Source: Novosphingobium sp. HII-3
GTDB taxonomy: Bacteria; Pseudomonadota; Alphaproteobacteria; Sphingomonadales; Sphingomonadaceae
NCBI RefSeq assembly: GCF_002916655.1
Contig: NZ_PPSM01000009.1
Span: 1-64,000 of the forward strand
Length of the DNA stretch: 64,000 nt
Reading direction: 5' to 3'
The position numbers were made by a program, and so were the translations under genes. The notes under the pieces are model-generated. The model did no database searches, was not told the DNA's origin, and was given only the letters and a program-made list of their open reading frames with translations. Shown piece by piece: positions 14,402 through 52,598 of the stretch (its first letter is position 1; every line of letters begins with the position of its first letter).

Positions 14402-14719
14402 TTCTTACCCCTCCGGCGGTATCCATTTGTACGCTAGGATACGGCATAAGCCGTTGATAGAAAAGGACTATCCTAACTAGGTCTATCGACATCTATCGAG
14501 GGGTAGTGCTCCGATTTGACGGTATAGCGGACGGTATGGGGAATCTTGTTCGATCAGCAAATTCGGGATACCGTCACGGCCAAGAGAGCTGCTGACGGTA
14601 TTTTTTTCTGGCATAACAGACTGATTTCAAAAAGGAATCATGCTTCCAGCATCGTCTGTTTTGGCCTGGCGGTATAATTGGCGCTTCTCCCCGATTTTGG
14701 GACGATTTTGGAGGCCCCC
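14402..14719. other. ICE left-end attachment region with repeated GRCGGTAT motifs
   Basis: This 318-base gap between guaA and the integrase holds no gene. The 8-mer GGCGGTAT or GACGGTAT occurs at 14415-14422, 14518-14525, 14530-14537, 14594-14601 and 14668-14675, and inverted at 14568-14575. Such a cluster beside the integrase gene is what arm-type recombinase sites look like. The crossover core (attL) is expected at the guaA stop codon. The matching right-end core is outside the window, so this is inference. Confidence 0.6.
14568..14608 (+). terminator. Possible terminator of guaA within the attachment region
   Basis: ATACCGTC and GACGGTAT form an 8-bp stem with an 18-base loop, followed by seven T residues. 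It may end guaA transcription, or the arms may simply be two of the recombinase sites. Confidence 0.5.
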
Positions 14720-15976
14720 ATGCTTACTGACATGGCGATTAAGGCGCTGAAAGCACAGAAGAAATTGTATAAGGTGAGCGACCGTGACGGTATGTACGTC
14801 GTGGTGCAGCCGTCGGGTGCGATCGTGTTCCGGTACGACTACCGCCTTAACGGCCGCCGCGAGACGCTAACGCTCGGTCGGTACGGGCCGGAAGGCCTTT
14901 CGCTGGCTCGCGCTCGGGAAAAGCTGATCGATGCCAAGCGGGCCATTTCAGAGGGGCGGTCTCCGGCCCAGGAGAAGCAGCACGACAAGCGGCGACTGAA
15001 GGAGGCAAAGAGGTTCGGCGAGTTCGGCGAGAAATGGTTCCAAGAGTCGCGCATGGCTGATAGCACGCGTGCGATGCGGCGCTCGATCTACGAGCGCGAC
15101 ATCCTACCAACGTTTCGAAACAGGCTTCTGACGGAGATTGCGCCAGACGATCTCCGCGTGATGTGCGGGAAAGTGAAGGAGCGCGGTGCTCCAGCCACGG
15201 CCGTCCATGTGCGGGATATTGTGAAGCTGATCTTTGCGTTCGCGATCCTGCATGGCGAGAAGGTCGCCAATCCGGCGGATGAAGTTGGGCCCGCGTCTAT
15301 CGCGACCTTCGTGCCGAAGGACCGTTCGCTGTCCCCTGGGGAAATCCGCGTCATGCTCGGGCAGCTCGAGCATGTGCCAACGCTGCCGACCATACGGTTG
15401 GGAATGAAGCTCTTCCTTCTGACGATGGTCAGGAAAAGCGAGCTACAGGATGCGACGTGGGATGAAGTCGATTTTGAGAACTCCGTCTGGTCGATCCCAA
15501 AAGAGCGAATGAAGCGGTCGAAGGCACACAACGTCTACCTGTCGCAGCAGGCCATCGACATCTTCATCGCGCTAAAAACCTGTGCGGGCAATTCGCGCTA
15601 TGTCCTTCCTTCGCGATACGACGCTGACGCACCGATGTCGCGGGCGACATTCAATCGGATCACGACCGCGGTCGTCGTCAGGGCAAAAAAAGAGGGGCTG
15701 CCGCTCGAACCGTTCACTGTTCACGATCTGCGGCGCACAGGTTCTACCCTGCTGAATGAGCTGGGCTTCAATAGCGATTGGATCGAGAAGTGCTTGGCGC
15801 ATGAGGACGGAAGGTCGTCGCGTGGCGTCTACAACAAGGCGGAGTACGAGCATCAACGCCGCCATATGATGCAGGAGTGGTCCAACCTGTTGGACGCGTG
15901 GGTTTTGGGTCAGAAGTATCGTCCGATGCTGCTCCCGGCCACGATGGAGTTGCTTGAGTTGGAGCCTAGTGTTTGA
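14720..15976 (+). CDS. P4-type tyrosine integrase of the ICE
   Basis: The product has 418 residues. An N-terminal DUF4102 arm-binding domain (MLTDMAIKALK, YDYRLNGRRETLTLGRYG) is followed by a core-binding domain and the catalytic domain. The catalytic residues are visible: Arg in LTMVRKSELQDATW, H-x-L-R in VHDLRRTGST, a following His in LAHE, and a Tyr in GVYNKAEY. The ATG at 14720 has GGAGG seven bases upstream. It should insert and excise the element at guaA. It overlaps the AlpA-like gene on the opposite strand by 11 bases at its 3' end. Confidence 0.93.
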   Translation: MLTDMAIKALKAQKKLYKVSDRDGMYVVVQPSGAIVFRYDYRLNGRRETLTLGRYGPEGLSLARAREKLIDAKRAISEGRSPAQEKQHDKRRLKEAKRFGEFGEKWFQESRMADSTRAMRRSIYERDILPTFRNRLLTEIAPDDLRVMCGKVKERGAPATAVHVRDIVKLIFAFAILHGEKVANPADEVGPASIATFVPKDRSLSPGEIRVMLGQLEHVPTLPTIRLGMKLFLLTMVRKSELQDATWDEVDFENSVWSIPKERMKRSKAHNVYLSQQAIDIFIALKTCAGNSRYVLPSRYDADAPMSRATFNRITTAVVVRAKKEGLPLEPFTVHDLRRTGSTLLNELGFNSDWIEKCLAHEDGRSSRGVYNKAEYEHQRRHMMQEWSNLLDAWVLGQKYRPMLLPATMELLELEPSV

Positions 15977-19957: not shown

Positions 19958-19973
19958 CGCCAAAAAAAACCTC

Positions 19974-20004: not shown

Positions 20005-20034
20005 ATGCTCGACTCAAATTGAAGGGCTTTTTTC

Positions 20035-20427: not shown

Positions 20428-20456
20428 CCGACCGCTTAACCTGAAGGAGAAAATCT

Positions 20457-20756
20457 ATGTTCCGACGTATCCTCGCAGCGACTGCACTTATTGTCATGCT
20501 TTCGCCTTTCGCGGCCCAAGCCGCCGAAAGAACCATTGTCCTAAACGTCGATAACGCGACGTGCGAACTCTGTGCCCCGATTGTCAAGAAAACGCTCTCC
20601 CGCGTCTCGGGCGTAAAGGCAGTAATGGTCCAGGAGGCGAATGGAACGTCGCCCGCCGTGGCGACGGTCACCTTCGACGATGCAGTCACTAATGTCGCGA
20701 CGCTCATTGCGGCGTCGACCAATGCTGGATATCCGGCGCGCGCGACAAAAGGCTGA
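20457..20756 (+). CDS. merP: Periplasmic mercuric ion-binding protein MerP
   Basis: The product has 99 residues. A cleavable signal peptide (RRILAATALIVMLSPFAAQA) is followed by one HMA fold. The metal site is NATCELCAPIVKKTL, with both Cys present. The usual Met before Thr is replaced by Ala. The rest (VSGVKAVMVQEANGTSPAVATVTFDD, written here in two conserved stretches VSGVKAV and VATVTFDD) matches the family. It scavenges Hg(II) in the periplasm and feeds MerT. GAAGGAG precedes the ATG, and it lies 29 bases after merT. Confidence 0.9.
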   Translation: MFRRILAATALIVMLSPFAAQAAERTIVLNVDNATCELCAPIVKKTLSRVSGVKAVMVQEANGTSPAVATVTFDDAVTNVATLIAASTNAGYPARATKG

Positions 20757-20760
20757 TGAC

Positions 20761-21020
20761 GTGAATAGTCGCGCCCTTTTTCGAACCGGCATCATTGGGG
20801 CGGTTGTGGCGGCGCTCTGCTGCGCGACTCCAATCCTTGGCTTGCGCTAGCAGCGATCGGGCTTTCGGCGCTCGCGGGCAAAGCCGATTATGTCCTGATT
20901 CCGGTTCTTGTCGCCTCGCTCGGGCTGGTCGGGATCGGGCTCTACCGACGCAACGCATCTACCCCGGCCGTCATCGACTGCTGTGAGACGGATAAGAACA
21001 CAGGAAAGTTCAAGTCATGA
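20761..21020 (+). pseudogene. merF: merF interrupted by a frameshift
   Basis: From a GTG at 20761 the frame reads NSRALFRTGIIGAVVAALCC and ATPILG, the first MerF helix with its Cys pair. It then meets TAG at 20848-20850. In another frame the protein continues: LAAIGLSALAGKADYVL, IPVLVASLGLVGIGLYRR and VIDCCETDK, with the C-terminal Cys pair, up to TGA at 21018-21020. Together they make one normal MerF of about 80 residues, so a small indel lies near 20840-20848. It may be a true loss of function or a sequencing error. MerT is intact, so mercury uptake need not suffer. Confidence 0.8.
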
Positions 21021-22450
21021 GTGATTGCTGCGCTCCGAGCGCAAAGAACGGGAACGGCCGCTACGACCTCATCGTCGTCGGCGCCGGCTCGGCCGGGTTC
21101 TCGGCCGCGATCACGGCGGCCGAACAGGGGGCGCAAGTTGCGTTGATCGGCCACGGCACGATCGGAGGGACGTGCGTCAATGTCGGCTGCGTCCCGTCGA
21201 AGGCCCTTATCCGGGCCGCAGAAGCGGTGCACCACGCCAACGCCGCACCCAGGTTTGCCGGGATCGCCGCGCAGGCGCGGGTGGCAGACTGGGGTGCGCA
21301 GGTCGCCCAAAAGGATGAACTGGTCGCGGGTCTGCGTCAGGCGAAGTACGCCGATCTCCTGCCATCTTATAACAGCGTCGCATATCATGAAGGCCGTGCC
21401 CGCCTCATCGATGGCGGCGTCGAAGCCGGTGGCAAGAGCTTCGCGGCGGATCGTATCATCATCGCCACCGGGACCCGGCCTGCGTTGCCAGCGATCCCGG
21501 GCATAACGGACATCTCAATCCTCGATAGCACCACGGCGCTGGAGCTGACCGCGCTGCCACGCTCGATGATCGTGCTCGGCGGCGGCTACATCGGCGCTGA
21601 GCTGGCGCAAACCTTCGCTCGAGTGGGGGTCGAGGTGACGCTAGTCTTCCGCAGCCGCCTCCTGCCGGAAGCGGAGCCTGAGATCGGGGCGGCTCTCGCC
21701 GGCTATCTCGCCGACGAGGGTATCAAGATCGTCGGCGGTCTGACCTACGAGTCGATCCGTCGGACGGAGGATGGCGTCGCCCTCACGGTGGTTCGGGACG
21801 GACACGCGGAGACGCTTGCGGCCGAGCGGGTCCTCGTCGCGACCGGTCGCGCCCCGAACACCGAAAGCCTTGGCCTTGAACGAGCTGGTATCGCCCGGAC
21901 GCCCGTGGGCGCCATCGTGGTCGACGACCGGATGCGCACCTCCAAAGTGGGCGTCTACGCGGCCGGCGATGTGACGGGCAAGGACCAATTCGTCTACATG
22001 GCGGCCTACGGCGCGAAGCTCGCGGCGAAGAACGCGCTGAATGGCGACAGCCTGCGCTACGATAACGCGGCGATGCCCGCCGTGGTCTTCACCGATCCGC
22101 AGGTCGGAAGCGTCGGGCTTACGGAGGCGCAGGCGCGCGCCGTCGGGCACAACGTCCGTACTTCGGTGCTTTCACTCGATAACCTGCCTCGCGCGCTTGC
22201 CGCCCGGGACACACGCGGGCTGATCAAGCTTGTGGCGGATGGCGTCACCCGCAAGCTGCTTGGAGCACATATCCTTGCGCCTGAGGGCGCGGACAGCATC
22301 CAGACGGCGGCGATGGCAATTCGGTGCGGTCTGACGATTGATGACCTCGTGGAGATGATTTTTCCCTATCTGACCACGGTCGAGGGCCTCAAACTTGCTG
22401 CGCAGACGTTCGACCGGGATGTCAAGATGCTGTCCTGTTGCGCCGGCTGA
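21017..22450 (+). CDS. merA: Mercuric reductase
   Basis: The product has 477 residues and reduces Hg(II) to volatile Hg(0) with NADPH in the cytosol. The FAD loop is LIVVGAGSAGFSAAI. The redox pair is Cys53/Cys58 in GGTCVNVGCVPSK. The NADPH loop is VLGGGYIGAELAQTFA. The C-terminal Cys pair (474/475, in LSCCAG) delivers Hg(II) to the active site. The N-terminal HMA domain of longer MerA proteins is absent, leaving only a short CC at residues 4-5. The ATG overlaps the stop of the broken merF (ATGA), so translation may have been coupled. Confidence 0.96.
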   Translation: MSDCCAPSAKNGNGRYDLIVVGAGSAGFSAAITAAEQGAQVALIGHGTIGGTCVNVGCVPSKALIRAAEAVHHANAAPRFAGIAAQARVADWGAQVAQKDELVAGLRQAKYADLLPSYNSVAYHEGRARLIDGGVEAGGKSFAADRIIIATGTRPALPAIPGITDISILDSTTALELTALPRSMIVLGGGYIGAELAQTFARVGVEVTLVFRSRLLPEAEPEIGAALAGYLADEGIKIVGGLTYESIRRTEDGVALTVVRDGHAETLAAERVLVATGRAPNTESLGLERAGIARTPVGAIVVDDRMRTSKVGVYAAGDVTGKDQFVYMAAYGAKLAAKNALNGDSLRYDNAAMPAVVFTDPQVGSVGLTEAQARAVGHNVRTSVLSLDNLPRALAARDTRGLIKLVADGVTRKLLGAHILAPEGADSIQTAAMAIRCGLTIDDLVEMIFPYLTTVEGLKLAAQTFDRDVKMLSCCAG

Positions 22451-36647: not shown

Positions 36648-38417
36648 CTAGAGACCGAGATCGCGCTTGCGCCCGAGGCTCCACTCGATGCCGCCGCCGC
36701 GAGCGACGCCGGTGATGTGCTGGCCGAGCTTGCGTTCGATCTCGCGCGACCAGGGCACGAGCTGGAAGCCGAGGCCCCCATCTGGTCCCGCGCCTTCGAT
36801 CATGGCGAAGCGGCCCGAGGAGAGCGTCAGGCGCTGGCGATATGTGCCCGAGACATTCTCGCCGGCTGCGACCTTCACATGCGGCAGACCCGTCTCGGCC
36901 GAGAGCTTCTCGCCCACGGCGTCCAAGTCGCGGCGGCGCAGCGTGCTGAGAAGATCGCGCTGGAGCATGATGCGCTGGCCTTGGCGGCGACCGAGCCCTT
37001 CGTCAGCGAGATGTTCGGCACGGGCCTGCATGGCGTCGCGCACCTCGCGGCCGAAGCCACCCATGGAGAGAGGCATCTGCTCGCGCTCCACGAGACGATG
37101 GTCGATCCAGGTGGCGCCCGGCGCGGTGATCTGTGTGCGCAGATCCAGATCGGAACGGGTAGCGAGCACGAGTGTCGGCCGCTGCTCCTCCGGCGACCCG
37201 AAGCGGCGGACCTCGACGATGCCACCGACAGGGGGAGCCTGTTCGAAGGCCTCGATGCCACGGAAGCGGACATGATGGGCGCGGCCGTCGGTGCCGTCGA
37301 TCACGGCATAGGCTTCGCCGGTCAGCTCATCATGCAGGCCCTTGTCGACCAGACGCCCGATGATCGGTGAGCCAGCGCCGCCGTCGGTCACATAGTCTGC
37401 GACGCTCCGATCCTGGCCGCGCTCGGTGAAGGCGCGGTGCATGGTCTTGATGACGTCACCGCGCATGCCGAGATCGCGAAGATGCCGCTCGGCTTCCAGA
37501 CCGACCATCCACTCCCCGGAGCCAGTCGAGGTGGCGAGCCCCATCTTCTCCAGACGCTGAAGACGGCCGATCATCAGGCGGCGGATCTCGGAATCCGCCG
37601 GGCCGTCTGATCCAGGGCGCAGGTCGATGGCGCCGACGTCGTCGGCATGGCTACGGATCTCGACATCGAGGCGGGTCCACCGCTCGGCGGTGACTTCCTT
37701 CTCCAGGGCGCTGCGAATTTCGTGCTCGGGTTTTGGCCCAAGCTCGATCGCCACCAGATCCTCGGCGCGGGACCGAAGGCCGCGGCTTATATAATCGCGC
37801 GAGATGACGAGATCAGCGCCGGCCTCATCCACACCGCGCACGAGCAGATGGACGTGCGGATTGTCGGTGTTCCAGTGATCGACGGCGACCCAGTCGAGCC
37901 GTGTCCCCAGATCGGCTTCCATTTGGCTCGCAAGATCGCGCGTGAACGCCTTCAGGTCGGTCATCTCGCTGGCGTCCTCAGGCGAGACGATGAAGCGGAA
38001 ATGGTGCCGGTCGTCCTTGCACCGGTCGGCAAAGGCGAGATCGTCGGTGCGATCGACGCCGGCATCGAACATGACGCCCTTCTCGCCGTCCCGGTTGACG
38101 CCGTCGCGCTTCAGGTAGGACAGATGCGCGGACAGCGGCGCGGACCGAAAGGACCGGCCCTGATGACGCACAACGCGCGCCTTGACGACGACGCGGCGCG
38201 TCGATGAGTACAGGCGGCTGCGGCTGAAACTGCCGCGCCCCCGGCCGAAGGTCGAGCGGCCATAGCCGGGTGCGCGTCTGCCGGACGCCGGCGCACCGGT
38301 ATGGCCAGCCTTCTTCGCGGCCCGCAGTACCCGATTGAGGAAGCTCTTCGCCTTCGGTGCGCGCGTGGTTTTGACGCGGCCAGGCCGGATCCGAAAATCG
38401 CTGTCGCCCTCGCTCAT
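36648..38417 (-). CDS. rlxS: Relaxase (VirD2/RlxS-like, DUF3363)
   Basis: The product has 589 residues. A basic, Gly/Arg-rich N-terminus is followed by the relaxase domain. AHLSYLKRDGV could hold a catalytic Tyr. The metal-binding His motif lies in VAVDHWNTDNPHVHLLVRG, with HHFRFIVSPED before it. The C-terminal half is the DUF3363 domain (EQRPTLVLATRSDLDLRTQ onward). It nicks oriT and pilots the strand into the recipient. The same architecture is found in RlxS of Mesorhizobium symbiosis ICEs. Confidence 0.9.
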   Translation of the reverse strand: MSEGDSDFRIRPGRVKTTRAPKAKSFLNRVLRAAKKAGHTGAPASGRRAPGYGRSTFGRGRGSFSRSRLYSSTRRVVVKARVVRHQGRSFRSAPLSAHLSYLKRDGVNRDGEKGVMFDAGVDRTDDLAFADRCKDDRHHFRFIVSPEDASEMTDLKAFTRDLASQMEADLGTRLDWVAVDHWNTDNPHVHLLVRGVDEAGADLVISRDYISRGLRSRAEDLVAIELGPKPEHEIRSALEKEVTAERWTRLDVEIRSHADDVGAIDLRPGSDGPADSEIRRLMIGRLQRLEKMGLATSTGSGEWMVGLEAERHLRDLGMRGDVIKTMHRAFTERGQDRSVADYVTDGGAGSPIIGRLVDKGLHDELTGEAYAVIDGTDGRAHHVRFRGIEAFEQAPPVGGIVEVRRFGSPEEQRPTLVLATRSDLDLRTQITAPGATWIDHRLVEREQMPLSMGGFGREVRDAMQARAEHLADEGLGRRQGQRIMLQRDLLSTLRRRDLDAVGEKLSAETGLPHVKVAAGENVSGTYRQRLTLSSGRFAMIEGAGPDGGLGFQLVPWSREIERKLGQHITGVARGGGIEWSLGRKRDLGL

Positions 38418-42915: not shown

Positions 42916-43197
42916 TCAGCGCGCGAAGCGGCTGGCGTTCGCGGACGGCGCGCTCTCTTGGCGTTTAGCGGGCAGCACAGCGCCGCGCGGATCGGAGGTC
43001 GAGGTGACCGCGCCGCGTTCGGTCCAGGCCTGGAGATCATCGACCGCGTAGACGACACGGCCGCCGAGCTTGCGATAGGACGGGCCGGTCCCGTAGGTGC
43101 GATGCTTCTCTAGCGTGCGCGCGGACAGGCCCAGGAAATGGGCAGCTTCCTTGGTGCGTAGAAAACGCGGCGGCAATGCGCTGAGATTGGGTGTCAT
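42916..43197 (-). CDS. RdfS-like excisionase / helix-turn-helix protein
   Basis: The product has 93 residues. The DNA-binding core is PRFLRTKEAAHFLGLSARTLEKHR, with a wing (GPSYRKLGGRVVYAVDDLQAW), the MerR/Xis-like fold. In ICEMlSymR7A the directionality factor RdfS heads the operon of replication, partition and transfer genes, and this gene has the same position ahead of repA-parA. GGAGG lies 7 bases before the ATG. It probably drives excision by the guaA-site integrase, under control of the FseA-like activator just upstream. Confidence 0.75.
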   Translation of the reverse strand: MTPNLSALPPRFLRTKEAAHFLGLSARTLEKHRTYGTGPSYRKLGGRVVYAVDDLQAWTERGAVTSTSDPRGAVLPAKRQESAPSANASRFAR

Positions 43198-43337
43198 GAT
43201 CGGGCCTCCGTGGTGTCCGTGGGTGCCGCGGGCGTTCAGCGGCTGACGAAGGTCACGATGGCGAAGGGAAACCGGCGAGTTGCAGCGGGATTTTGGGGGG
43301 TACTAAATCCCCACACCAAGAGACGCGTGCGATCCGG

Positions 43338-43895
43338 CTAGGATCGGCGGCGATGACGAAGCAGTTTGCGATAGCCACCCGAGATCATGGCGCGGGCATC
43401 CCCGAGGAGGCCTGCGACGACGTGGCGGGCGGAAGCGGCTTGCCATTCATCACGGGTGAGTTTGCCGATGCGGAGGATGACCTCGGCGATCTCCTGCTGG
43501 GTCGCTCCGGCGCGATATCCATCGATTGTTTGCAGCATGCGCCGCGCGCGGGCCAGTTGCTGACGCGTGAGGCGCGTGTCGGGTGGAATGGCGCGGCCGT
43601 GAAGAGAGGCAAGCAGCCGAGCAACGGCTTCCATACGATCGAACCCCTCCATGCCGAGTGGGATCACCGCTACGAGTCGCTGCTCGGCCGATCCGTCGCG
43701 GGGAAGCGCCAGATGCAGGCGCTGGCCGTTTCTCAAATCATGCAGGACATGAGGGCTGTGTTCGGGTGAAATCTGTCGGAGGGGCGTGCTAGCCGCAGCG
43801 ACGGACGCTGGCGCCGGTGTCAGTATAACCGATCCGGTATCTTCCTCCGGAAGCCAGAACACCTGCGCCTCGGTGGACTTGAGAGCTGGGGCAAC
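43338..43895 (-). CDS. DUF2285 part of an FseA-like excision activator (expressed by +1 frameshift)
   Basis: This frame continues the DUF6499 frame after a +1 slip at CCC-U. It encodes VAPALKSTEAQVFWLPEE, then the DUF2285 helices (LTRQQLARARRMLQTIDGYR, ATQQEIAEVILRIGKL, DEWQAASARHVVAGLLGD) to the stop at 43338. DUF2285 is a helix-turn-helix-like domain. Only weak TTG starts exist in this frame, so independent translation is unlikely. The joined protein would be 62 plus 185 residues. In ICEMlSymR7A the same two domains are joined by programmed frameshifting to give FseA, which activates rdfS. Confidence 0.75.
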   Translation of the reverse strand, partial: VAPALKSTEAQVFWLPEEDTGSVILTPAPASVAAASTPLRQISPEHSPHVLHDLRNGQRLHLALPRDGSAEQRLVAVIPLGMEGFDRMEAVARLLASLHGRAIPPDTRLTRQQLARARRMLQTIDGYRAGATQQEIAEVILRIGKLTRDEWQAASARHVVAGLLGDARAMISGGYRKLLRHRRRS

Positions 43896-44082
43896 AGGGA
43901 AATCGCAACCCCCACCGCGTACCGACGCGTTCGATCGGCGATGGTGACTCAAAGAGTTCGGCGTAATCGCGCTGATAATCCTCGTTCCGTCGCAACCATT
44001 CCCAACCGATATCGGGGGCAGTGAGCTGGTCGACGTAATCGTAACTTGATGACGATCGCCACCGGGATGTGTTGGGCGACAT
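43789..44082 (-). CDS. DUF6499 part of an FseA-like excision activator
   Basis: The zero-frame product has 97 residues. The first 62 are the conserved DUF6499 domain (SSSYDYVDQLTAPDIGWEWL, RRNEDYQRDYAEL, ERVGTRWGLRFP). After codon 62 (CCC at 43899-43897) the zero frame becomes meaningless (CCPSSQVHRG). The DUF2285 sequence resumes in the +1 frame with GTT at 43895. GGAGG lies 7 bases before the ATG at 44082. Slippage of the Pro-tRNA from CCC to CCU is a known +1 mechanism. It could alternatively be a simple frameshift mutation. Confidence 0.8.
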   Translation of the reverse strand: MSPNTSRWRSSSSYDYVDQLTAPDIGWEWLRRNEDYQRDYAELFESPSPIERVGTRWGLRFPCCPSSQVHRGAGVLASGGRYRIGYTDTGASVRRCG

Positions 44083-44199: not shown

Positions 44200-44466
44200 T
44201 CAGTGGCGGAGGCCTTCACGCACGAGTTCGCGGTAGCCGTGGGTTGTCATCCAGCGGGCGCGGGCGAGATGGGTGTCGTGGACGCGCCGCGCGCGGTCAG
44301 GATCGCATTCGGGATCGAGACCGAAGAGAATATGGACGGCTTCGCGCCAGTCCGCGCCGTCCGTCGCAGCGTCGAGCAGGCGCAGATAGAGCGTCATGTG
44401 CTCGCGATCATATGTCGTGAGCCCCACACTCTCTGGCGGCTCATCTGAAAAGTCTGTCTTGGTCAC
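44200..44466 (-). CDS. Small DUF2285 protein, QseM-like antiactivator
   Basis: The product has 88 residues. A single DUF2285 domain is visible: DREHMTLYLRLLDAATDGAD, WREAVHILFGLDPECD, and ARRVHDTHLARARWMTTHGY. Stand-alone DUF2285 proteins of this size act as antiactivators (QseM) that bind FseA and block ICE excision. Here it lies just upstream of the split FseA-like gene on the same strand, as expected. The start is a GTG at 44466. Function is inferred by analogy with ICEMlSymR7A. Confidence 0.75.
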   Translation of the reverse strand: MTKTDFSDEPPESVGLTTYDREHMTLYLRLLDAATDGADWREAVHILFGLDPECDPDRARRVHDTHLARARWMTTHGYRELVREGLRH

Positions 44467-44589: not shown

Positions 44590-44835
44590 CTATCGCTTGT
44601 CAGTTTTCCCACGGACCACCATCACTCCTTCGCCCTGGTCGGTCGTCAGGAGGAGGATGCCGTGGCTTTCAAGAGCCCGCCGGACCTGATCGCGCGTGGT
44701 CTCATACACCTCGAGACCGCTTAAGGATTCGAGGCGTTTCAGCGCGGTCAGCGATACCTGGGCCTTGTCAGCGAGCGTCTCCTGGTTCCAACCGAGCAAC
44801 GCGCGTGCAGCCCGCGATTGGTGGGCGGTGATCAT
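44590..44835 (-). CDS. Helix-turn-helix regulator
   Basis: The product has 81 residues. The HTH is QSRAARALLGWNQETLADKA, then VSLTALKRLESLSGL, an XRE-like fold. A second part (TTRDQVRRALESHGILLLTT, then GEGVMVVRGK) is typical of small transcriptional regulators that bind ICE control regions. The ATG at 44835 follows GGAGG. It is divergent from the XRE gene at 44992, and the intergenic space carries a perfect palindrome and a TTTACA-18-TATAGT promoter directed at this gene. Confidence 0.75.
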   Translation of the reverse strand: MITAHQSRAARALLGWNQETLADKAQVSLTALKRLESLSGLEVYETTRDQVRRALESHGILLLTTDQGEGVMVVRGKTDKR

Positions 44836-44936
44836 GCATTGATCACCTCCCACCGATACGAACGCGCACGCCAGAACTACGACTTCTCTATTCGGGCCAA
44901 TCGGATAGCGAGGCTTCCCGCGCGCTCCGCTGGCTC

Positions 44937-44991: not shown

Positions 44992-45210
44992 ATGGATATG
45001 CGCAAATTGGTCGGCCGGAACTTCGCCCGCCTGCGTCGGGAGAAAGGCCTGACCCAGGAAGAGGTCGAAGCGCGCTCCGGTTTCAGTCAACAGTATCTCA
45101 GCAGCCTTGAACGCGGCCGGAGGAACCCGACCGTGATCACGCTTTATGAATTGGCTCAGGCCCTCGGCGTCAGCCACATGGAATTGGTCCGGCCCGACGA
45201 TCAGCTTTGA
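44992..45210 (+). CDS. XRE-family repressor-like protein (QseC-like position)
   Basis: The product has 72 residues. It is essentially one Cro/CI helix-turn-helix: GRNFARLRREKGLTQEEVEA, SGFSQQYLSSLERGRRNPTV, and TLYELAQALGVSHMELV. Such minimal repressors often control their own promoter. It is divergent from the helix-turn-helix and QseM-like genes across a perfect palindrome, the arrangement of QseC and QseM in Mesorhizobium ICEs. No clear ribosome site precedes ATG 44992 or the second ATG at 44998, so a leaderless mRNA is possible. Confidence 0.8.
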   Translation: MDMRKLVGRNFARLRREKGLTQEEVEARSGFSQQYLSSLERGRRNPTVITLYELAQALGVSHMELVRPDDQL

Positions 45211-45409: not shown

Positions 45410-46456
45410 CTATGTCAGAGGAGCGGCGGCCTCTGGCCGCTTACCCCAGTCGAACTCAGTTCCATCCACCCACATGCGATGCAGTATGACACCGATGCGG
45501 CGAGCGAGGGCGACGATCGCCTTCTTGTGGCCTCGACGTCGCGAGACCTGAGCAGCCCAAGCCTTTAGGGTGGACCAGCGTTTTACGCGAGTCAGTAGCA
45601 CCTGTGCTGCCTCGTAGAGCGCGCTGCGCGTCATGGCGTCACCCCATCTCGAAATGCGGCCGGTGCGATCCACTTCGCCGGATTGGTGCTTGCGCGGCGT
45701 CAGACCAAAATGGGCACCAACGGTTCGCGACCGAGTGAAGCGAGATGGGACATCGACCGTTGCCCGGAAGATGAGCGCTACGAGCGGGCCGACCCCCGGC
45801 ACCGTCATAAACCGGCGCGAAACAGTGTCGTCCCGCGCGAGACGGACAAGCAAATCGTCCAACCGACCGAACTGCTCCCGCAGCGATCGCCGCGCCAACA
45901 GGAGCGTATCAGCGACTATGTGTAGGTCGCTTCCTGCGATCAGTTCCCGTACTCGCGGCTCGAAATCGCGCGCCGTGACTTTGCCGAGGTGATATCCGAA
46001 GTTTCGGATGAGACCACGGATTTCATTTTCAACATCCTGGAGCTTGTTTCGCAGGAGTTGGCGGGCCGTCAGGACGGTCCGAAGGCGCTGGCTTGTCGGC
46101 GTCTTGACGTGGACGGGTTTGAAGAGGCCGACGCGCATCATCTGCGCGATTCCGCGCGCATCATGCCGGTCGGTCTTGTTGAGTTGCGCGGAGAGAGCCG
46201 CCTTCATGTGCCGGGTCTCTACACACACGATGGGAATGCCGGCTTCGGCTAAATGCCCATAAATGTGCTGAGACAGCATCCCTGCTTCGAGACCGACGCG
46301 GACGACTGGAAGCGGGAGCGACAGGATATGCTGCGCAATCTCTTCCGGATTGGATGAAAGCTTTCGTTCATGCGCTACCTGCCCATCGGCGTTGACAACG
46401 CAGAGATTGATTGTTCGGGCGGAAACATCCAGCCCAATATAATAGCTTTGAGACAT
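45410..46456 (-). CDS. IS110-family transposase (DEDD type)
   Basis: The product has 348 residues. The N-terminal RuvC-like domain shows the DEDD set: Asp in YIGLDVSARTINL, Glu in VGLEAGMLSQH, and Asp/Asp in NKTDRHDARGIAQ. The C-terminal domain (FMTVPGVGPLVALIFRATVD, then GLTPRKHQSGEVDRTG, and GDAMTRSALYEAA with the catalytic Ser) is the Tnp_IS116/IS110/IS902 domain. GGAGGAG precedes the ATG at 46456. It appears intact. Confidence 0.93.
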   Translation of the reverse strand: MSQSYYIGLDVSARTINLCVVNADGQVAHERKLSSNPEEIAQHILSLPLPVVRVGLEAGMLSQHIYGHLAEAGIPIVCVETRHMKAALSAQLNKTDRHDARGIAQMMRVGLFKPVHVKTPTSQRLRTVLTARQLLRNKLQDVENEIRGLIRNFGYHLGKVTARDFEPRVRELIAGSDLHIVADTLLLARRSLREQFGRLDDLLVRLARDDTVSRRFMTVPGVGPLVALIFRATVDVPSRFTRSRTVGAHFGLTPRKHQSGEVDRTGRISRWGDAMTRSALYEAAQVLLTRVKRWSTLKAWAAQVSRRRGHKKAIVALARRIGVILHRMWVDGTEFDWGKRPEAAAPLT

Positions 46457-46530
46457 GCCGAACTCCTCCGAATCAAGAGTCGACACGTCTCATAACCAAT
46501 CTACAGACCATTTTGTAAACTACGACTATT

Positions 46531-47187
46531 TCAGTCGTTCTCGGGACTAGACTGGCCCTTGGGCCGCGACGAGCCATCACCTATTGCATCGTGCGCCTCC
46601 TTCAGGATATTCCAGCCACCCTTGAGCACGATGCCGCCAACCAGCAACCCGATGATTAGGTCAGGCAGCGGGGACGCGAAGAACATGACCGCGGCACCCG
46701 ACGCGACAATGCCGGCGTTCGCCAGCATATCGTTCGTCGTAAAGATCCAGGACGCTTTGAGATGCACACCTCGATCCCGATGCGACCGCAGCAGTTTTAA
46801 GCAAACTACATTCAGCGCGGCATTGGCGAGAGCCGTGACGATCATGGCGAGGCCGATTGGCTCGGCACCCACGAAGAAACGGCGAAGCACCTCCACGAAC
46901 AATGCAAGTCCAAAGGCGATCAGAAGCAAACCCGAAAGACGCGCCACTCGCACCTTTGCCACGATCGTCCGGCCGACGGCATAAAGGCTGACGGCATAAA
47001 CGCCGGCATCTCCCAAATTATCCAGGGCGGCACCCAAGAGACCTGTCGAGTCTGCGATAACGCCGACGACACCGGCCACGATCACCTGCAAGAAGTTTAT
47101 GGCAAGAACCCAGATAAGAGTCCTGCGTTCGGCGGCATTGCTCGCGTCAAGCTCGATTTCACCTTCTTCTTGTTGTTTTTCACTCAT
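46531..47187 (-). CDS. Cation diffusion facilitator (CDF) transporter
   Basis: The product has 218 residues. About six membrane helices are present (LIWVLAINFLQVIVAGVVGV, LLLIAFGLALFVEVL, MIVTALANAALNVVCLKLL and others). Metal-site helices carry ADSTGLLGAALDNLGDAG and TTNDMLANAGIVASG, in which the usual His of the CDF zinc site is replaced by Asn. The C-terminal cytosolic domain is almost absent, so it is a short CDF. Metal specificity cannot be read. It ends the metal operon and lies 23 bases after uppP. The IS110 element sits immediately downstream. Confidence 0.85.
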   Translation of the reverse strand: MSEKQQEEGEIELDASNAAERRTLIWVLAINFLQVIVAGVVGVIADSTGLLGAALDNLGDAGVYAVSLYAVGRTIVAKVRVARLSGLLLIAFGLALFVEVLRRFFVGAEPIGLAMIVTALANAALNVVCLKLLRSHRDRGVHLKASWIFTTNDMLANAGIVASGAAVMFFASPLPDLIIGLLVGGIVLKGGWNILKEAHDAIGDGSSRPKGQSSPEND

Positions 47188-47210
47188 ACACGTTTCCGAT
47201 ATTTTGCATC

Positions 47211-48083
47211 TCAAGTGAAATAGCCCAAAGCAACCGCCCAGATGAGTACGATACCGAGAACACCTCGGTAAATAACAAACGGCCAGGCGGAAAAACGCTC
47301 GAGAACGCGCATCAGCCCCCAAATCGCACAGAACGCGGAAATAGAAGCCACGACGAGCCCGACAAGAAGTAGTGACCAGCCGTCGGCGGAAAGCTGCACT
47401 TTGTGGAGTTCCCAGAGCTCCTTGAAGCCAGCCAGGGCGATTGCCGGCAGGCCAAGAAGGAATGAGAACCGCGCCGCCTCATCTCGCTTCAGGCCGAGGG
47501 CGAGCGCCGCAGTCAAAGTCGAGCCTGAACGCGAAACGCCAGGAATCAGCGCTCCGATTTGAGCAATTCCCACGATCATTGCATCGATGGCCGATGTGTT
47601 CTCAAGCGTTCGTCGGTGCCGGGCAAAAATCTCCGCGAGCGCCAGGAGGACAGCCATGACGATGCACGCCCAGCCGATGACTTCGAGAGTACGAAGCGGC
47701 GAGCCGCACGCGTTCAACGCTCCAGACAAGGAAAGGCCGGCAATACCGATCGGGATCGTGGCAAGGAGAATTCCGACCGAGAAGCGGAAGTGTCGATCTC
47801 GGAAATCCCGATTTGCGACGGCACGCAGCGAATTGGTGGCTAGTTGGCTCACGTCGCTCCAGAAATAACTGACGACTGCAGTAAGCGCTGCAAGCTGCAT
47901 GGCGGCTGAAAAGGCTGAGCCAGGATCCTGCCAACCGAGCAGCGCAGGCACGATCCGCATATGGGCGGTCGAAGAGATCGGTAGCAACTCGGTGATGCCT
48001 TGGACAAGTCCGAGCAGGGCGACCTTGCCATAGCCTAGCGCCACGAATCCGGTGTCGACGCCTTGAGTACACGCTCCCGTCAT
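47211..48083 (-). CDS. uppP: Undecaprenyl-diphosphatase (PbrB-like)
   Basis: The product has 290 residues and is an integral membrane protein. Family motifs are GLVQGITELLPISSTAH and ALIPGVSRSGSTLTAALALG, the two phosphatase boxes. It removes a phosphate from undecaprenyl diphosphate. In pbr-type lead operons this enzyme (PbrB) is thought to supply periplasmic phosphate that precipitates Pb(II) pumped out by the P-type ATPase. The presence of lspA and the ATPase in the same operon supports that role. ATG 48083 is chosen; a longer frame upstream lacks a ribosome site. Confidence 0.9.
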   Translation of the reverse strand: MTGACTQGVDTGFVALGYGKVALLGLVQGITELLPISSTAHMRIVPALLGWQDPGSAFSAAMQLAALTAVVSYFWSDVSQLATNSLRAVANRDFRDRHFRFSVGILLATIPIGIAGLSLSGALNACGSPLRTLEVIGWACIVMAVLLALAEIFARHRRTLENTSAIDAMIVGIAQIGALIPGVSRSGSTLTAALALGLKRDEAARFSFLLGLPAIALAGFKELWELHKVQLSADGWSLLLVGLVVASISAFCAIWGLMRVLERFSAWPFVIYRGVLGIVLIWAVALGYFT

Positions 48084-48201
48084 TCTGGCTCCCGGTTGTT
48101 GCGCGGCGCGGGCGCGCCCCGATGAATCACGCGCCAAAGTTCGGCGGGGGTTCTGAAGCCGACTGACGAGTCGCAGCAATTCGCGGCAGCCAGCGAGTCC
48201 C

Positions 48202-48936
48202 TCAACCGATCGCTCCCAGCATCGGAAACGTCATCAGCATCCAAATGGCGATCTCCTGCAACCTCCCGGTCATCATCAAAACGCCGACGCCGATCATGAC
48301 CGCACCACCGCCGATGTTCAGCGCGGCACCGACGCGGCGCATGCGCTTCAATGCGGCTGCCGCGTTTCCCATGAAGAGGGCCGTGAGGAGAAACGGCACA
48401 CCGAGGCCGAGGCCGTAAGTTCCGAGAAGAATCGCGCCGTTGCCTGATGACGTCGCGGTTACCGTGAGGATGGAGCCCAATACCGGGCCAATGCAGGGCG
48501 TCCAGCCGAAGGCAAAGGCGACACCCAGCAGGAAGGCGCCGACCGGTCCATTGACCTGGCGCGGTCCGTTCCATCGGCGGTCGGTCATGAGTATCGGGAG
48601 GCGAAGGAGCCCCGTCATCGCCAAACCGAAGACAATGACCAGAGCTCCGCCGATCAGGTTGGTTTCCATCTGGAAGCGTTGGAGAAGGCCGCCGAGGGCC
48701 ATCGCGCTGACTCCAAGCAGCACGAATATGGTCGTGAACCCGAGCACGAACAGCAGCGCAGGGCGGAAGATGTGAAGCCGGGATACCGCATCACTGCTGC
48801 CGGTCGTGCCGGCGCCACCAGCGACATAGGACAGGTAGCCCGGCACGAGCGGCAGGACGCAGGGTGAAAGGAAGGAGATAGCGCCGGCAGCGGCCGCTGT
48901 CGCCAGCCCGAGCAACGATATTTCCAGCGCCGCCAT
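48202..48936 (-). CDS. ccdA: CcdA-family thiol-reductant transporter
   Basis: The product has 244 residues with six membrane helices. The redox Cys lie in ISFLSPCVLPLVPGYLSYVAG (Cys in SPCVLP) and FAFGWTPCIGPVLGSILTV (TPCIGP). CcdA carries electrons from cytosolic thioredoxin to the periplasm. In a metal-resistance operon it may keep periplasmic thiols reduced, which is inference. It lies 2 bases after the lspA stop and 118 before uppP. Confidence 0.9.
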   Translation of the reverse strand: MAALEISLLGLATAAAAGAISFLSPCVLPLVPGYLSYVAGGAGTTGSSDAVSRLHIFRPALLFVLGFTTIFVLLGVSAMALGGLLQRFQMETNLIGGALVIVFGLAMTGLLRLPILMTDRRWNGPRQVNGPVGAFLLGVAFAFGWTPCIGPVLGSILTVTATSSGNGAILLGTYGLGLGVPFLLTALFMGNAAAALKRMRRVGAALNIGGGAVMIGVGVLMMTGRLQEIAIWMLMTFPMLGAIG

Positions 48937-48938
48937 GC

Positions 48939-49499
48939 TCAGCGCTTCCCGTTGCTAAGCGGCTCCTGCGTGCGAAGCACCGGTTGGGTCGAAAAAAGCG
49001 ATCCAGCCAGGAGCAGCGCGACGCCAATGCTGATTGCAACATCCGCCATGTTGAAGGTCGGCCAATGCCAGTTGCCTATGTGAAAATCGAGAAAGTCTGT
49101 CACCGCGCCTTGATGCACGCGGTCAACGATGTTGCCGGCGGCGCCGCCGGCGATCAAACCGAGAGCCGTTGCTTCAATGGTCCTGCGGGTCCGCATTGCC
49201 CAAACGAGAAGACCGACCGTGATCGCCACTTTGATCCCGGCCAACACCAACGGATGCTCGAGGAAGACATCTTGGAACATCCCGAAGCTGACTCCGGTGT
49301 TGAAGCCGAGCGTCAGGTTGAAAAAGGGCACAACCTCGATCACGCGTGGCGGGACCATGACGGCATTTATGATCAACCACTTCGTAGCAACGTCGAAAAG
49401 AAGCGCGGCCACAAATGCGCCGCCAACCCATATCGCGATATTTCTAGCGGGACGTTCGGCCACGATGATTCCTTGTGTTCTTCGGGTTCTGATCGGCAT
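48939..49499 (-). CDS. lspA: Lipoprotein signal peptidase (PbrC-like)
   Basis: The product has 186 residues. Four membrane helices carry the catalytic Asp pair: AAGNIVDRVHQGAVTDFLDF and FNMADVAISIGVALLLAG. It cleaves prolipoproteins after diacylglycerol transfer. An extra copy on a mobile element, next to a P-type ATPase and uppP, matches pbrC of Cupriavidus lead-resistance operons. ATG 49499 is used; an upstream in-frame ATG at 49523 is possible. A 45-base gap follows the ATPase gene. Confidence 0.92.
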   Translation of the reverse strand: MPIRTRRTQGIIVAERPARNIAIWVGGAFVAALLFDVATKWLIINAVMVPPRVIEVVPFFNLTLGFNTGVSFGMFQDVFLEHPLVLAGIKVAITVGLLVWAMRTRRTIEATALGLIAGGAAGNIVDRVHQGAVTDFLDFHIGNWHWPTFNMADVAISIGVALLLAGSLFSTQPVLRTQEPLSNGKR

Positions 49500-49544
49500 T
49501 TCTGTCGTCAGCGGCCGCCCCAATACAGGGCGGCCGCTATTGGC

Positions 49545-52500
49545 TCAATGCGCAGTTGCAGGGCGAGCCACAGTGGAATGCTGGCGCTCCTGTGCTCGAA
49601 CCTTTGCGCCGCCGACTGGGCCACCATCTCTCTGGCGCTGTTCCCGATTGAGGAGCCGCAAACCGTTGAGAACGACCAGCAGGGAGGCCCCAACATCGGC
49701 GGCGATCGCGCCCCAAAGGGATGCGAGACCGATCACCGTCAGCACTGTGAACAACAGCTTCACGGCGATCGAGAAGGCGATATTCTGCCGAATGACGGCG
49801 AGCGTGGCTCGTGAATGGCGCACGAGCCAGGGAAGTCTGGAGAGGTCGTCCGACATCAGGGCGACGTCTGCCGTTTCGATGGCTGCGTCGCTCCCCATTG
49901 CGCCCATGGCAATGCCGAGATTGGCGCGGCCCATGGCAGGGGCGTCATTGACCCCGTCACCCACCATGGCGACGACGCCATAGCGCCGAACCAGGTCCTC
50001 GACGGCCGTGACCTTGTCGCCGGGCAGAAGTTCCGCGCGAACTTCATCAATGCCGGTCTGCTTGGCAATCGCCTCGGCGGTGGCCCGATTGTCGCCTGTC
50101 AGCATCACCACTTTTTCCACGCCCGCCCGATGCAGCGCGGTGACGATATCCTTGGCTTCAGCCCTCACAGCATCGGCAACAGCGATCAGTCCCCAGACTT
50201 CCTGGCCGTCGCCAACGGCGACAATGGTCCGGCCAGCGCCGGAAAGTGTGTCGGCGCGTTCCAGGATGGCCGGTGAGCCGACCGCGCGTTCATCGAGGTA
50301 GCGGCGTGACCCAAGCCAGACTTCGCGACCGGAGACGCGGCCGGTCATGCCGCGACCCGTGATGGCCTGGACGGCCTCGGCCGGTTGTGCGGCAATGCCG
50401 TTTTCTGTTGCCCTCGCCAAAATAGCGCGGGCGATGGGGTGCTCGCTGCGCGCCTCGAGGGCTGCTGCTAACCGAAGAAGGTCATCCTCGTTTCGGCTGC
50501 CGAGCGCCAAGATCTCCACGACCTGAGGACGTCCTTCGGTGAGCGTCCCCGTCTTGTCCATGGCGATTGCTTTCAAGCGCGCCGGCGTCTCGAGATGGAC
50601 GCCGCCTTTCACCAACACGCCCTGCTTCGCAGCTCCCGCAAGGGCAGCCACAATGGTCACGGGCGTCGAGATGACAAGGGCGCAGGGGCAGGCGATCACG
50701 AGCAATACGAGGGCGCGATAGAACCAAACCTCCCAGCCACCACCGAGCAACAGCGGCGGCACCAAAAAAACGGCTATCGCGAGCGCCATAACGACGGGCG
50801 TATAGACGCGTGCAAATTTCTCGACCCACTGCTCGCTGGGAGCCCGCCGGCCCTGCGCGGAGCCGACCATGCGGATGATCTGCGCGAGCGTGGTATCGCT
50901 TGACGCCTTGGTGGTCACGACGTCCAGCGCGCCTTCGCCGTTGATGGTGCCTGCAAAAACGTCGTCTCCTTCCGATTTGAAGACCGGGACGCTTTCGCCG
51001 GTGATCGGTGCCTGGTTGACCTCACTCTCTCCGGCGGCCACACGGCCGTCGAGCGGTACTTTATCGCCAGGTCGAATAATGATGTGCGAACCGACACGGA
51101 CTTCGGCTGCCGGCACGTCTCTCTCCGTGCCGTCTTCAAGCATGATGCGCGCGGTCGGCGGCGCGAGCTCCATCAGGGCCGCCACGGCCCGCCGCGCTCG
51201 GCCGAGGCTCCAGGCCTCGAGAGCAAGGGCGAGCGCGAAGAAGAACGAAACCGTTGCGGCTTCGAACCAAGCGCCAATTCCGATCGCACCCACGACGGCG
51301 ATCACCATCAGGAGGTTCATGTCGGGACGCAGGCGCCTGGCCGCGAGCCAAGCCTTCGGGGCCACGTAACGCACAGCACAAAGCGCGGCGAGCGTATAGA
51401 GAATGACGCTTAGCAGCGGCGTTGCACCTGCACCATGTTCGCCTGCCTCGAAGGCCGCGATGATTCCACCTCCGACCCAGGCGTGAACCGCAAATCCGAT
51501 CGCGACGAACAGGCCGCTCGCAGCAGTCAGCCATGATTGAATGCGTCTGCGCCGCTCTTCTGCCCGTGCCCCTTCGCTGGTGGCGCCCTCGGTCCAGGGC
51601 TCCGCCTGCAGGCCGGCGCGTACAACGGCCTTCTCGATCTTGGCCTCCAAGGCGGCGTCAGGCGCCATGTCGATCGACATGCGGCCGTTAAGAAGGTCGA
51701 AAGCGAGCTTGTCCTCACCAACGAGCGGGCCGACTTCGCGCTTCAGGGCGGCGATCTCGTCGGCACAATCCATGCCATGGATTCGATAGACAACGCCGCC
51801 AGGCAGATTGATCGGCGGCGGGCTGAGGGCTTCCTTCACGTTGGTCGCGCAACCGCACGCGGATCCTGCGGCATCGCAGGTTGCCTGCTCAGCAACGGCC
51901 GGCGCTGTCCACAGCTCAGCCCGCATCCCGGTTCGCGCGACCGCCTGTTCGATCTCTTGGAGGGTTGTCCCGCTCTGAGGTGCAATGGTCATCGCACCCT
52001 GCGAAGTGTCGAAGGCGAGCTTATCCTCGCCAACGAGCGGTCCCAGTTCCCTGGTCAGAGCAGCCACCTCATTCTTGCAGTCGAGGCCGCGCACACGCAG
52101 GAGCATGGTTTCGGCCGAACCATCCTGGATGAGAGAGCCTGACATCCCGGTTCTTGAGATGCCGCTCACGAGTTCGTCGATCGAGGCACGGTGCTGAGGC
52201 GCGACCGTCATCAACCCCTTTGCTGTGTCGAAGGCGAGCCAGTCCTCACCGCCAACCAGAGGGCCGATTTCGCGCTTGAGCATCGCGACCTCGTTTTTGC
52301 AATCGAGGCCCTCGACCTTGAACAGCCACGCCGACGCGGAGGACTTATCCAGCTCAGCCAGCAATTGTGCCCTCATTCCAGTGGTAGCGACCGCCTGCTC
52401 AATGGTATCGAGTGCCGGAGCGGTCAGGCCCGCGACCTCCATGACACCGCCCTTGGTGTCGAACGACAACTTGTCCTCGCCACCGACGACGGGACCGACC

Positions 52501-52598
52501 GCGGCACGAAGCATCCGAACTTCGTTCTGACAATCCAAGCCCTCAACCTTGAAGCGTAACGTGCCTAAGGTGCTTCTAGCCTCGGCTTCAATAGTCAT
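49545..52598 (-). CDS. P1B-type heavy-metal ATPase (ZntA/PbrA-like) with four N-terminal HMA-like repeats
   Basis: The product has 1017 residues. Four tandem HMA-like repeats occupy residues 15-350. Their metal loops are GLDCQNE (Cys23), GLDCKNE (Cys100), GLDCKNE (Cys174) and GMDCADE (Cys278), so each is C-x-x-E, not C-x-x-C. A Cys cluster (241, 248, 250) lies between repeats three and four. The pump core has the CPC motif (VIACPCALVIS), DKTGTLTEG, SEHPIA and GDGVNDAPA. The last membrane helix carries DVGASLLVVLNGLRLL, the Asp used by Zn/Cd/Pb pumps. It exports Zn, Cd or Pb. Its promoter is MerR-type. Confidence 0.95.
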   Translation of the reverse strand: MTIEAEARSTLGTLRFKVEGLDCQNEVRMLRAAVGPVVGGEDKLSFDTKGGVMEVAGLTAPALDTIEQAVATTGMRAQLLAELDKSSASAWLFKVEGLDCKNEVAMLKREIGPLVGGEDWLAFDTAKGLMTVAPQHRASIDELVSGISRTGMSGSLIQDGSAETMLLRVRGLDCKNEVAALTRELGPLVGEDKLAFDTSQGAMTIAPQSGTTLQEIEQAVARTGMRAELWTAPAVAEQATCDAAGSACGCATNVKEALSPPPINLPGGVVYRIHGMDCADEIAALKREVGPLVGEDKLAFDLLNGRMSIDMAPDAALEAKIEKAVVRAGLQAEPWTEGATSEGARAEERRRRIQSWLTAASGLFVAIGFAVHAWVGGGIIAAFEAGEHGAGATPLLSVILYTLAALCAVRYVAPKAWLAARRLRPDMNLLMVIAVVGAIGIGAWFEAATVSFFFALALALEAWSLGRARRAVAALMELAPPTARIMLEDGTERDVPAAEVRVGSHIIIRPGDKVPLDGRVAAGESEVNQAPITGESVPVFKSEGDDVFAGTINGEGALDVVTTKASSDTTLAQIIRMVGSAQGRRAPSEQWVEKFARVYTPVVMALAIAVFLVPPLLLGGGWEVWFYRALVLLVIACPCALVISTPVTIVAALAGAAKQGVLVKGGVHLETPARLKAIAMDKTGTLTEGRPQVVEILALGSRNEDDLLRLAAALEARSEHPIARAILARATENGIAAQPAEAVQAITGRGMTGRVSGREVWLGSRRYLDERAVGSPAILERADTLSGAGRTIVAVGDGQEVWGLIAVADAVRAEAKDIVTALHRAGVEKVVMLTGDNRATAEAIAKQTGIDEVRAELLPGDKVTAVEDLVRRYGVVAMVGDGVNDAPAMGRANLGIAMGAMGSDAAIETADVALMSDDLSRLPWLVRHSRATLAVIRQNIAFSIAVKLLFTVLTVIGLASLWGAIAADVGASLLVVLNGLRLLNREQRQRDGGPVGGAKVRAQERQHSTVARPATAH

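What the first reader, a model, noticed from the sequence alone, without database searches (positions are those of the whole stretch)
43338..44082. Split DUF6499-DUF2285 activator joined by a +1 shift at CCC-U
The DUF6499 frame and the DUF2285 frame abut at codon 62 (CCC at 43899-43897, next base U). A single +1 slip of the Pro-tRNA from CCC to CCU makes RFP-VAPALK, a seamless 247-residue protein. In the Mesorhizobium element ICEMlSymR7A the excision activator FseA is known to be made from the same two domains by programmed frameshifting. This ICE belongs to another lineage and inserts at guaA, so it would extend that control device.
Basis: partly seen in the sequence, partly recalled or inferred. 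Interest (0 to 1): 0.75.

Follow-up and report, generated by a model that had tools for sequence, protein, structure and literature searches.

The report
FseA-type transfer activator needing frameshift

Summary
On the minus strand a DUF6499 frame (from 44082) and a DUF2285 frame (to 43338) join by one +1 shift into 247 residues.

It is an ordinary FseA-family member. PMC10359603 (2023) describes 4709 FseA homologues, about 61% split by a conserved +1 site. The usual neighbours are present: a QseM-like antiactivator (PDB 7uqt, E 1.4e-20), an RdfS-like gene (8dgl, 3.7e-11) behind an inverted repeat, and an RlxS-like relaxase. FseA-bearing ICEs, guaA among their sites, are described in Mesorhizobium (PMC8627217), so 'another lineage' is not supported.

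The slip site CCC-U is probably wrong. Of 139 distinct +1-split loci, 138 keep TTT followed by C or T one codon upstream; CCC-T is in 7 of 137. The five nearest named relatives lack CCC-U but keep TTT-C. UUU to UUC gives the same protein here. Codon choice before the slip is skewed (GGG, TTG/TTA, CGA) against the same genes' DUF2285 domains.

Novelty is low. What remains is a sharper slip signal, UGG-GGN-YUR-CGA-UUU-Y (CGA frequent, not fixed), with no general stop trigger and no enriched RNA fold. I could not read the primary 2015 paper, so this may be in print. Frameshifting itself was not tested.

The parts
43789..44082 (-). 0-frame ORF, 97 aa, DUF6499 (PF20109); residues 1-61 belong to FseA, the rest is an apparently unconstrained tail
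43338..43898 (-). +1-frame part of FseA after the slip, middle region and DUF2285 (PF10074)
43909..43914 (-). UGGGGG, Shine-Dalgarno-like word encoding W57-G58 just before the slip
   Evidence: the word is noted as RBS-like in PMC10359603
43899..43905 (-). CGA UUU C: proposed E-site and P-site codons plus the base used in the +1 slip (Phe-tRNA UUU to UUC)
   Evidence: TTT-Y in 138 of 139 split loci; CGA in 50 of 57 loci with Arg at this place
43896..43899 (-).
   Evidence: CCC-T in 7 of 137
44200..44466 (-). QseM-like lone DUF2285 protein, 88 aa, net charge -5, likely antiactivator
   Evidence: PDB 7uqt QseM, 1.4e-20
43286..43312 (-). FseA-box-like inverted repeat GGGGAT-15-ATCCCG between fseA and the rdfS-like gene
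42916..43197 (-). RdfS-like protein (recombination directionality factor), expected target of FseA
   Evidence: PDB 8dgl RdfS, 3.7e-11; PF12728 1.6e-9
44992..45210 (+). HTH_3 regulator divergent from the qseM side; candidate QseC counterpart, not tested
44590..44853 (-). small HTH protein upstream of the qseM-like gene
   Evidence: HTH_3 1.9e-4, below cut-off
36648..38417 (-). RlxS-like relaxase of the ICE
   Evidence: (NF041267 1.4e-168, below its curated cut-off)
14678..15976 (+). tyrosine recombinase just 3' of guaA (12833-14401)
   Evidence: GMP synthase domains of guaA

Best explanation
The gene is a member of the FseA family, made as one protein only when the ribosome shifts +1 at the end of the DUF6499 domain. 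The ribosome translates MSPN...WGLR in frame 0. With Phe-tRNA on UUU (43902-43900), it slips forward so that the anticodon re-pairs with UUC, and reading continues CCU GUU GCC in the +1 frame into DUF2285. The likely helpers are the Shine-Dalgarno-like UGGGGG, which ends two codons before UUU, and the CGA codon just before UUU; a stop codon or downstream RNA fold does not seem to be needed. The low yield of full-length FseA keeps the element quiet. FseA then binds an inverted repeat in front of the rdfS-like gene and switches on excision and transfer. A QseM-like protein encoded next door would hold it in check by binding the DUF6499 domain. Shown by sequence: the two frames, their coding constraint, the conserved UUU-Y, the neighbours and an inverted repeat. 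Inferred from the family: frameshifting in vivo, its rate, DNA binding, the role of the repeat and antiactivation.
For: Both domains match over their full Pfam models in the two frames and in the joined protein. The +1 arrangement is in 139 of 172 distinct loci, TTT-Y in 138 of 139 and in 5 of 5 named plasmid copies. Codon choice at the site against the DUF2285 domains of the same 137 loci: GGG 90 of 133 Gly vs 164 of 1227; CGA 50 of 57 Arg vs 222 of 2516; TTG/TTA 77 of 129 Leu vs 270 of 2163. Phe TTT is 135 of 404 in that control and 131 of 136 at the site in the unselected count. In-frame homologues use GGG in 5 of 29 and TTC in 12 of 16. Substitution and indel pattern. The QseM-like neighbour hits PDB 7uqt at 1.4e-20 and the RdfS-like one 8dgl at 3.7e-11; charges -5 and +10. 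An inverted repeat lies at a fixed place before the rdfS-like gene in 29 of 58 loci vs 3.7 on average (max 10) in shuffles. The published family does all this (PMC10359603, PMC11963761, PMC5882170; passages read).
Against: No expression, peptide or reporter data for this locus. One split locus (L010) has TGT-C instead of TTT-Y. TTT-C alone does not mark a split gene: three single-frame homologues (L088, L092, L130) also read TTT CAC at this place. UGGGGG is not strict: GGC, GGT or GGA follow W in 43 of 133. The window's codon after UUU is CCC-U, so a second slip place cannot be excluded there. The window's inverted repeat has one mismatch, and its near arm lies 89-94 bases before the ATG, whereas the paper's legend puts it at 62-67; other repeat peaks exist in the same count (26 of 58 at 60-64 bases, 11 at 210-214). 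The loci are related, so counts are not independent events. Quorum-sensing control, part of the R7A system, was not found: no LuxI-type match in the genome (whose controls also did not ring), one LuxR-type match on another contig.
Confidence: 0.9

Rival explanations
1. The same FseA homologue, but with the slip on Pro CCC to CCU.
For: CCC-U is present in the window and gives the same 247-aa product.
Against: CCC-T in 7 of 137 split loci; CGC, which cannot re-pair in this way, is the most common codon there (63 of 137). The five nearest named relatives have CCT at this place.
Confidence: 0.07
2. Two separate proteins: DUF2285 is translated from its own start, without fusion. A paper on Azorhizobium says this of its homologues (PMC9601964, passage).
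For: NCBI annotation calls two CDS in 4 of the 5 plasmid records fetched (the fifth has no annotation there).
Against: Third-position constraint in the +1 frame begins at the slip. UUU-Y and the codon bias before it have no role if there is no fusion. 32 homologues are one frame. Fusion in R7A is reported by others (PMC10359603 introduction).
Confidence: 0.04
3. A decayed gene or sequencing error (single-base indel).
For: An odd frame is what an indel looks like; L103, L100 and L043 do carry an extra frame break or stop.
Against: The same frame change at the same word in 138 of 139 split loci; only 12- and 18-base indels and mostly third-position changes against close relatives.
Confidence: 0.01
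4. Transcriptional slippage in the G run instead of ribosomal slippage.
For: A five-G run lies in UGGGGG.
Against: 43 of 133 loci break the run (GGC, GGT, GGA). A shift there would replace the WGLxF that many in-frame homologues also carry in part.
Confidence: 0.02

Closest known systems
FseA (msi172-msi171) of ICEMlSymR7A, Mesorhizobium japonicum
   Same: DUF6499 + DUF2285 split by a +1 programmed frameshift beside WGL/UGGGGG; QseM-type neighbour; RdfS-like gene behind an inverted repeat; RlxS-like relaxase
   Different: Host not named by any search (nearest named copies: Phyllobacterium sp. 628, Sphingobium scionense, Sphingomonas trueperi); integrase beside guaA rather than tRNA-Phe; qseM-like gene directly upstream; no LuxR/LuxI-type match in the window; repeat lies further from the rdfS start. 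The R7A gene itself was not compared.
FseA-carrying ICEs of Mesorhizobium, some at guaA (PMC8627217)
   Same: Integration beside guaA and an fseA-regulated transfer system
   Different: No sequence of these was compared here; the right end of this element is not on the contig
RovC of Yersinia (PF10074 name, PDB 6xz5)
   Same: Same Pfam DNA-binding domain; the 2023 paper finds FseA models similar to RovC; weak match here, E 0.11
   Different: RovC is described as activating a type VI secretion system; whether its gene needs a frameshift was not looked up
prfB (release factor 2) +1 frameshift
   Same: Shine-Dalgarno-like word upstream of a +1 slip (prfB details recalled, no call)
   Different: prfB slips at CUU before a UGA stop with a 3-nt spacer (recalled); here there is no stop trigger and 6 nt separate UGGGGG from UUU

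Membership tests
FseA | N-terminal DUF6499 with AWEFLRRN-type helix | tested here: met
   PF20109 7.3e-21; GWEWLRRN at residues 26-33
FseA | C-terminal DUF2285 with positive charge | tested here: met
   PF10074 4.2e-29; net charge +10 at pH 7
FseA | Conserved +1 frameshift site next to WGL/UGGGGG | tested here: met
   (sequence only)
FseA | rdfS-type gene as target | tested here: met
   the next gene matches solved RdfS 8dgl at 3.7e-11; that it is the target is inferred
FseA | FseA box (inverted hexamers, 15 or 16 bp apart) before rdfS | tested here: inconclusive
   GGGGAT-15-ATCCCG, one mismatch; place shared by 29 of 58 loci, but near arm 89-94 bases before ATG against 62-67 in the paper's legend; the published box letters were not available to compare
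FseA | QseM antiactivator on the element | tested here: met
   1.4e-20 to QseM 7uqt; charge -5
FseA | Transcription switched on by TraR quorum sensing (as in R7A; not a general family feature) | tested here: inconclusive
   no tra-box search made
FseA | Activates rdfS and is made by frameshifting in cells | not testable with these tools
   needs bench work
ICEMlSymR7A-type conjugation system | RlxS relaxase | tested here: inconclusive
   NF041267 1.4e-168, 562.6 bits against a curated cut-off of 850
ICEMlSymR7A-type conjugation system | Trb transfer apparatus | tested here: met
   TrbB TIGR02782 2.3e-135, above cut-off

The most novel reading that the evidence does not exclude
The FseA sites form a class of +1 frameshift signal of their own: UGG-GGN-YUR-CGA-UUU-Y. 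A Shine-Dalgarno-like pull, an unusual CGA codon in the E site and a Phe-tRNA that prefers UUC over UUU together drive the slip. No stop codon, starved codon or RNA structure is needed, and lineages switch back and forth between this signal and a single frame.
Probability: 0.4. Interest if true: 0.45.

Novelty: new member of a known kind. Interest (0 to 1): 0.2.

Why it matters
The locus adds one more case to a widespread, published control of conjugative transfer. Its use is practical. Gene finders call such activators as two genes, and the sharper word (TTT followed by C or T, after TGG-GGN-YTR, often CGA) marks where to join them and which codons to test. If CGA in the E site and UUU-to-UUC re-pairing are shown to drive the slip, it would be a simple, stop-free +1 signal that can be taken apart at the bench.

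Tried and rejected
Rejected: CCC-U as the conserved slip site; G-run transcriptional slippage; sequencing error; independent start of DUF2285. A downstream RNA stimulator was looked for and not seen: mean z -0.25 over 124 less redundant loci, window z +0.98 (60 nt folded, 30 dinucleotide shuffles each). A stop-codon trigger is not general: 2 to 237 codons of 0 frame follow TTT, median 18, in the 124 less redundant loci. A right-hand att repeat of the guaA 3' end was looked for on contig C9 (70,056 bases); only 11-12-base matches were found, and the contig ends close behind an IS21-type transposase pair, so the far end of the element is not visible. A tree of concatenated domain alignments needs at least 13 changes between split and single-frame states (5 forced by well-supported branches; shuffled mean 29.6), but it is a quick tree with long branches and cannot tell gain from loss. 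PDB search with the DUF2285 frame alone found nothing up to E 0.1; the joined protein found only RovC at E 0.11. The joined protein was not modelled in 3D.

Not seen: Ramsay et al. 2015 PNAS and 2013 Mol Microbiol (primary papers; the 2015 one asked for twice and not held; the 2013 one not asked for). Whether they already give the UUU-Y site is unknown to me. Searches that did not turn up a paper stating it: and finds in PMC10359603, PMC5009743, PMC5882170, PMC9601964, PMC11963761.

Full report
What is there. On the minus strand, ATG at 44082 opens a 97-codon frame with a full DUF6499 domain, and a second frame, one base on, ends at 43338 with a full DUF2285 domain. A single +1 step joins them into 247 residues with both domains.

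It is real coding, in two frames. Not every match listed was fetched; those left out are mostly weaker ones. My profile found 184 DUF6499 hits in these loci (none in L027); 8 had no DUF2285 partner. After removing exact duplicates 172 pairs were left: 139 at +1, 32 in one frame, 1 at +2. All 12 loci from named genomes are +1. Against five close relatives (86-87% DNA identity for three, 78-80% for two) the two indels in each pair are 12 and 18 bases. Changes fall on third positions of the 0 frame before the site (15-23 of 25-41) and of the +1 frame after it (26-69 of 43-126). In the 0-frame tail most changes (7-13 of 10-19) sit on position 1, which is position 3 of the +1 frame. So the 0-frame tail looks unconstrained as protein and the +1 frame does not.

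Where the slip is. In the 139 split loci the constant word is not CCC-U but TTT followed by C or T, one codon upstream. One search found TTT in 131 of the 136 loci aligned on W[GRC][LVIM] (next base C 122, T 9). Of the other five, L021, L059, L060 and L069 have it when read at the right W or one codon later (for L021, for the rest), and L010 has TGT-C. The three not aligned (L043, L100, L172) all show TTT-C. That makes 138 of 139. With the added demand of an open +1 frame, 137 remain; L010 and L100 drop out. The codon after TTT is CGC in 63, CCC in 41 and CCT in 13 of these 137; CCC-T occurs in 7. The five nearest named relatives read TTT CCT TGT or TTT CCT CGT. Five of five named plasmid copies fetched (Paracoccus, Mesorhizobium twice, Sinorhizobium, Shinella; of 43 plasmid records with a match) have TTT-C. 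A Phe-tRNA moving from UUU to UUC or UUU explains all split loci but L010; a Pro-tRNA on CCC-U explains few. The word alone does not make a gene split: three single-frame homologues (L088, L092, L130) also read TTT CAC there.

Nucleotide-level signal. Within the same 137 loci, codon choice just before the slip departs from that in the DUF2285 domain: Gly GGG 90 of 133 vs 164 of 1227; Leu TTG/TTA 77 of 129 vs 270 of 2163; Arg CGA 50 of 57 vs 222 of 2516. Phe TTT in that control is 135 of 404 (at the site TTT was a condition of the set; the unselected count is 131 of 136). Thinning to 124 less redundant loci changes little (GGG 80 of 121, CGA 43 of 49). Single-frame homologues do not share the bias: GGG 5 of 29 and first Phe TTC 12 of 16. 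Loci are related, so these are not independent events. UGGGGG is already noted as ribosome-binding-site-like by PMC10359603. The CGA preference and UUU-Y were not stated in the passages I could read, but I could not read the primary 2015 paper. No downstream fold is enriched (mean z -0.25, window +0.98, n 124) and the 0-frame stop lies 2 to 237 codons on, so neither is a general trigger.

Surroundings. Directly upstream, 44200-44466 is a lone DUF2285 protein that matches the solved QseM (7uqt) at 1.4e-20. Its net charge is -5 against +10 for the FseA DUF2285 part, in line with the negative QseM and positive FseA surfaces of PMC10359603. Downstream, 42916-43197 matches the solved RdfS (8dgl) at 3.7e-11. 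Between them lies GGGGAT-15-ATCCCG at 43312-43286. An inverted hexamer pair with 15 or 16 bases between arms (one mismatch allowed) sits 143-147 bases before the same protein landmark in 29 of the 58 loci with a recognised rdfS-like landmark (of 172), against a mean of 3.7 and a maximum of 10 in 200 mononucleotide shuffles. Its letters differ between loci while the pairing is kept (for example TGCGAT-16-ATCGCA, TGTCGA-16-TCGACA). Two cautions: other peaks exist in the same count (26 of 58 at 60-64 bases, 11 at 210-214), and the window's near arm lies 89-94 bases before the ATG where the paper's legend gives 62-67. I therefore call it FseA-box-like. The relaxase matches RlxS, though below that model's curated cut-off, and TrbB is clear; a tyrosine recombinase sits just after guaA. 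The element looks to be of the ICEMlSymR7A conjugation type, not another kind.

What is known. PMC10359603 (abstract, section 18, first part of section 19 and found passages read): FseA from msi172-msi171 by low-frequency +1 frameshift; the conserved site in alpha-, beta- and gamma-proteobacteria; 4709 homologues, about 61% split. PMC8627217 (passages, part of the abstract among them): all ICEs identified in 41 Mesorhizobium genomes are said to carry fseA and rdfS, and guaA is among their integration sites. PMC5882170 and PMC11963761 (passages): the FseA to RdfS cascade. The finding is thus a further member of a published family.

Against and uncertain. Nothing here shows frameshifting in cells. 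CCC-U in the window could add a second slip place. Quorum sensing was not found: one LuxR-type match on another contig and no LuxI-type match (where the control genomes also did not ring). In my sample the 10 paired loci from outside the window's class are all single-frame (of 12 fetched; L119 and L121 did not pair). This small sample neither confirms nor contradicts the published statement about beta- and gamma-proteobacteria. The tree is rough and tells only that the state changed several times.

Noticed in passing
upstream of rdfS-like genes in L016, L051, L052, L058, L065, L097, L099, L131, L139, L157 and others: A second inverted pair, CCTCCT-15-AGGAG, about 60 bases before the protein landmark overlaps the likely ribosome-binding site; 26 of 58 loci have some pair at 60-64, of more than one type. 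It could hide the ribosome-binding site of rdfS. Not in the window.
   Followed up: no
L017, L031, L066, L113, L114, L156: Split loci whose 0 frame stays open for about 165-240 codons from W, across much of DUF2285, so two long frames overlap.
   Followed up: no
L177: Single-frame homologue with TGG GGG CTG CGG TTC GGC: the FseA site with TTC in place of TTT-C, a natural joined version.
   Followed up: no
L088, L092, L130: Single-frame homologues that still read TTT CAC after TGG GGN ATC AGC; they may leak a little +1 product or be a comparison set for what else the slip needs.
   Followed up: no
PMC9601964 (Azorhizobium caulinodans rihF1b/rihF1a): The paper says frameshifting is absent because the two parts have their own start and end codons; that is also how annotation shows split loci here, so it deserves a second look.
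   Followed up: no
window 45410-46486 and contig C9 67725-69957: An IS110-type transposase lies between the control region and a metal-transport block, and an IS21-type pair lies near the contig end, which hides the right end of the element.
   Followed up: partly
window 18069-22450 and 46531-52598: Likely metal cargo: two pyridine-nucleotide-disulphide oxidoreductases with a MerR-type regulator (mercury reductase is a guess from memory), a cation-efflux protein and a heavy-metal P-type ATPase.
   Followed up: partly
L010, L043, L100, L103: Loci with an extra lesion (TGT-C at the slip, an early TAG, a later stop, a second frame change), possibly decaying copies.
   Followed up: partly
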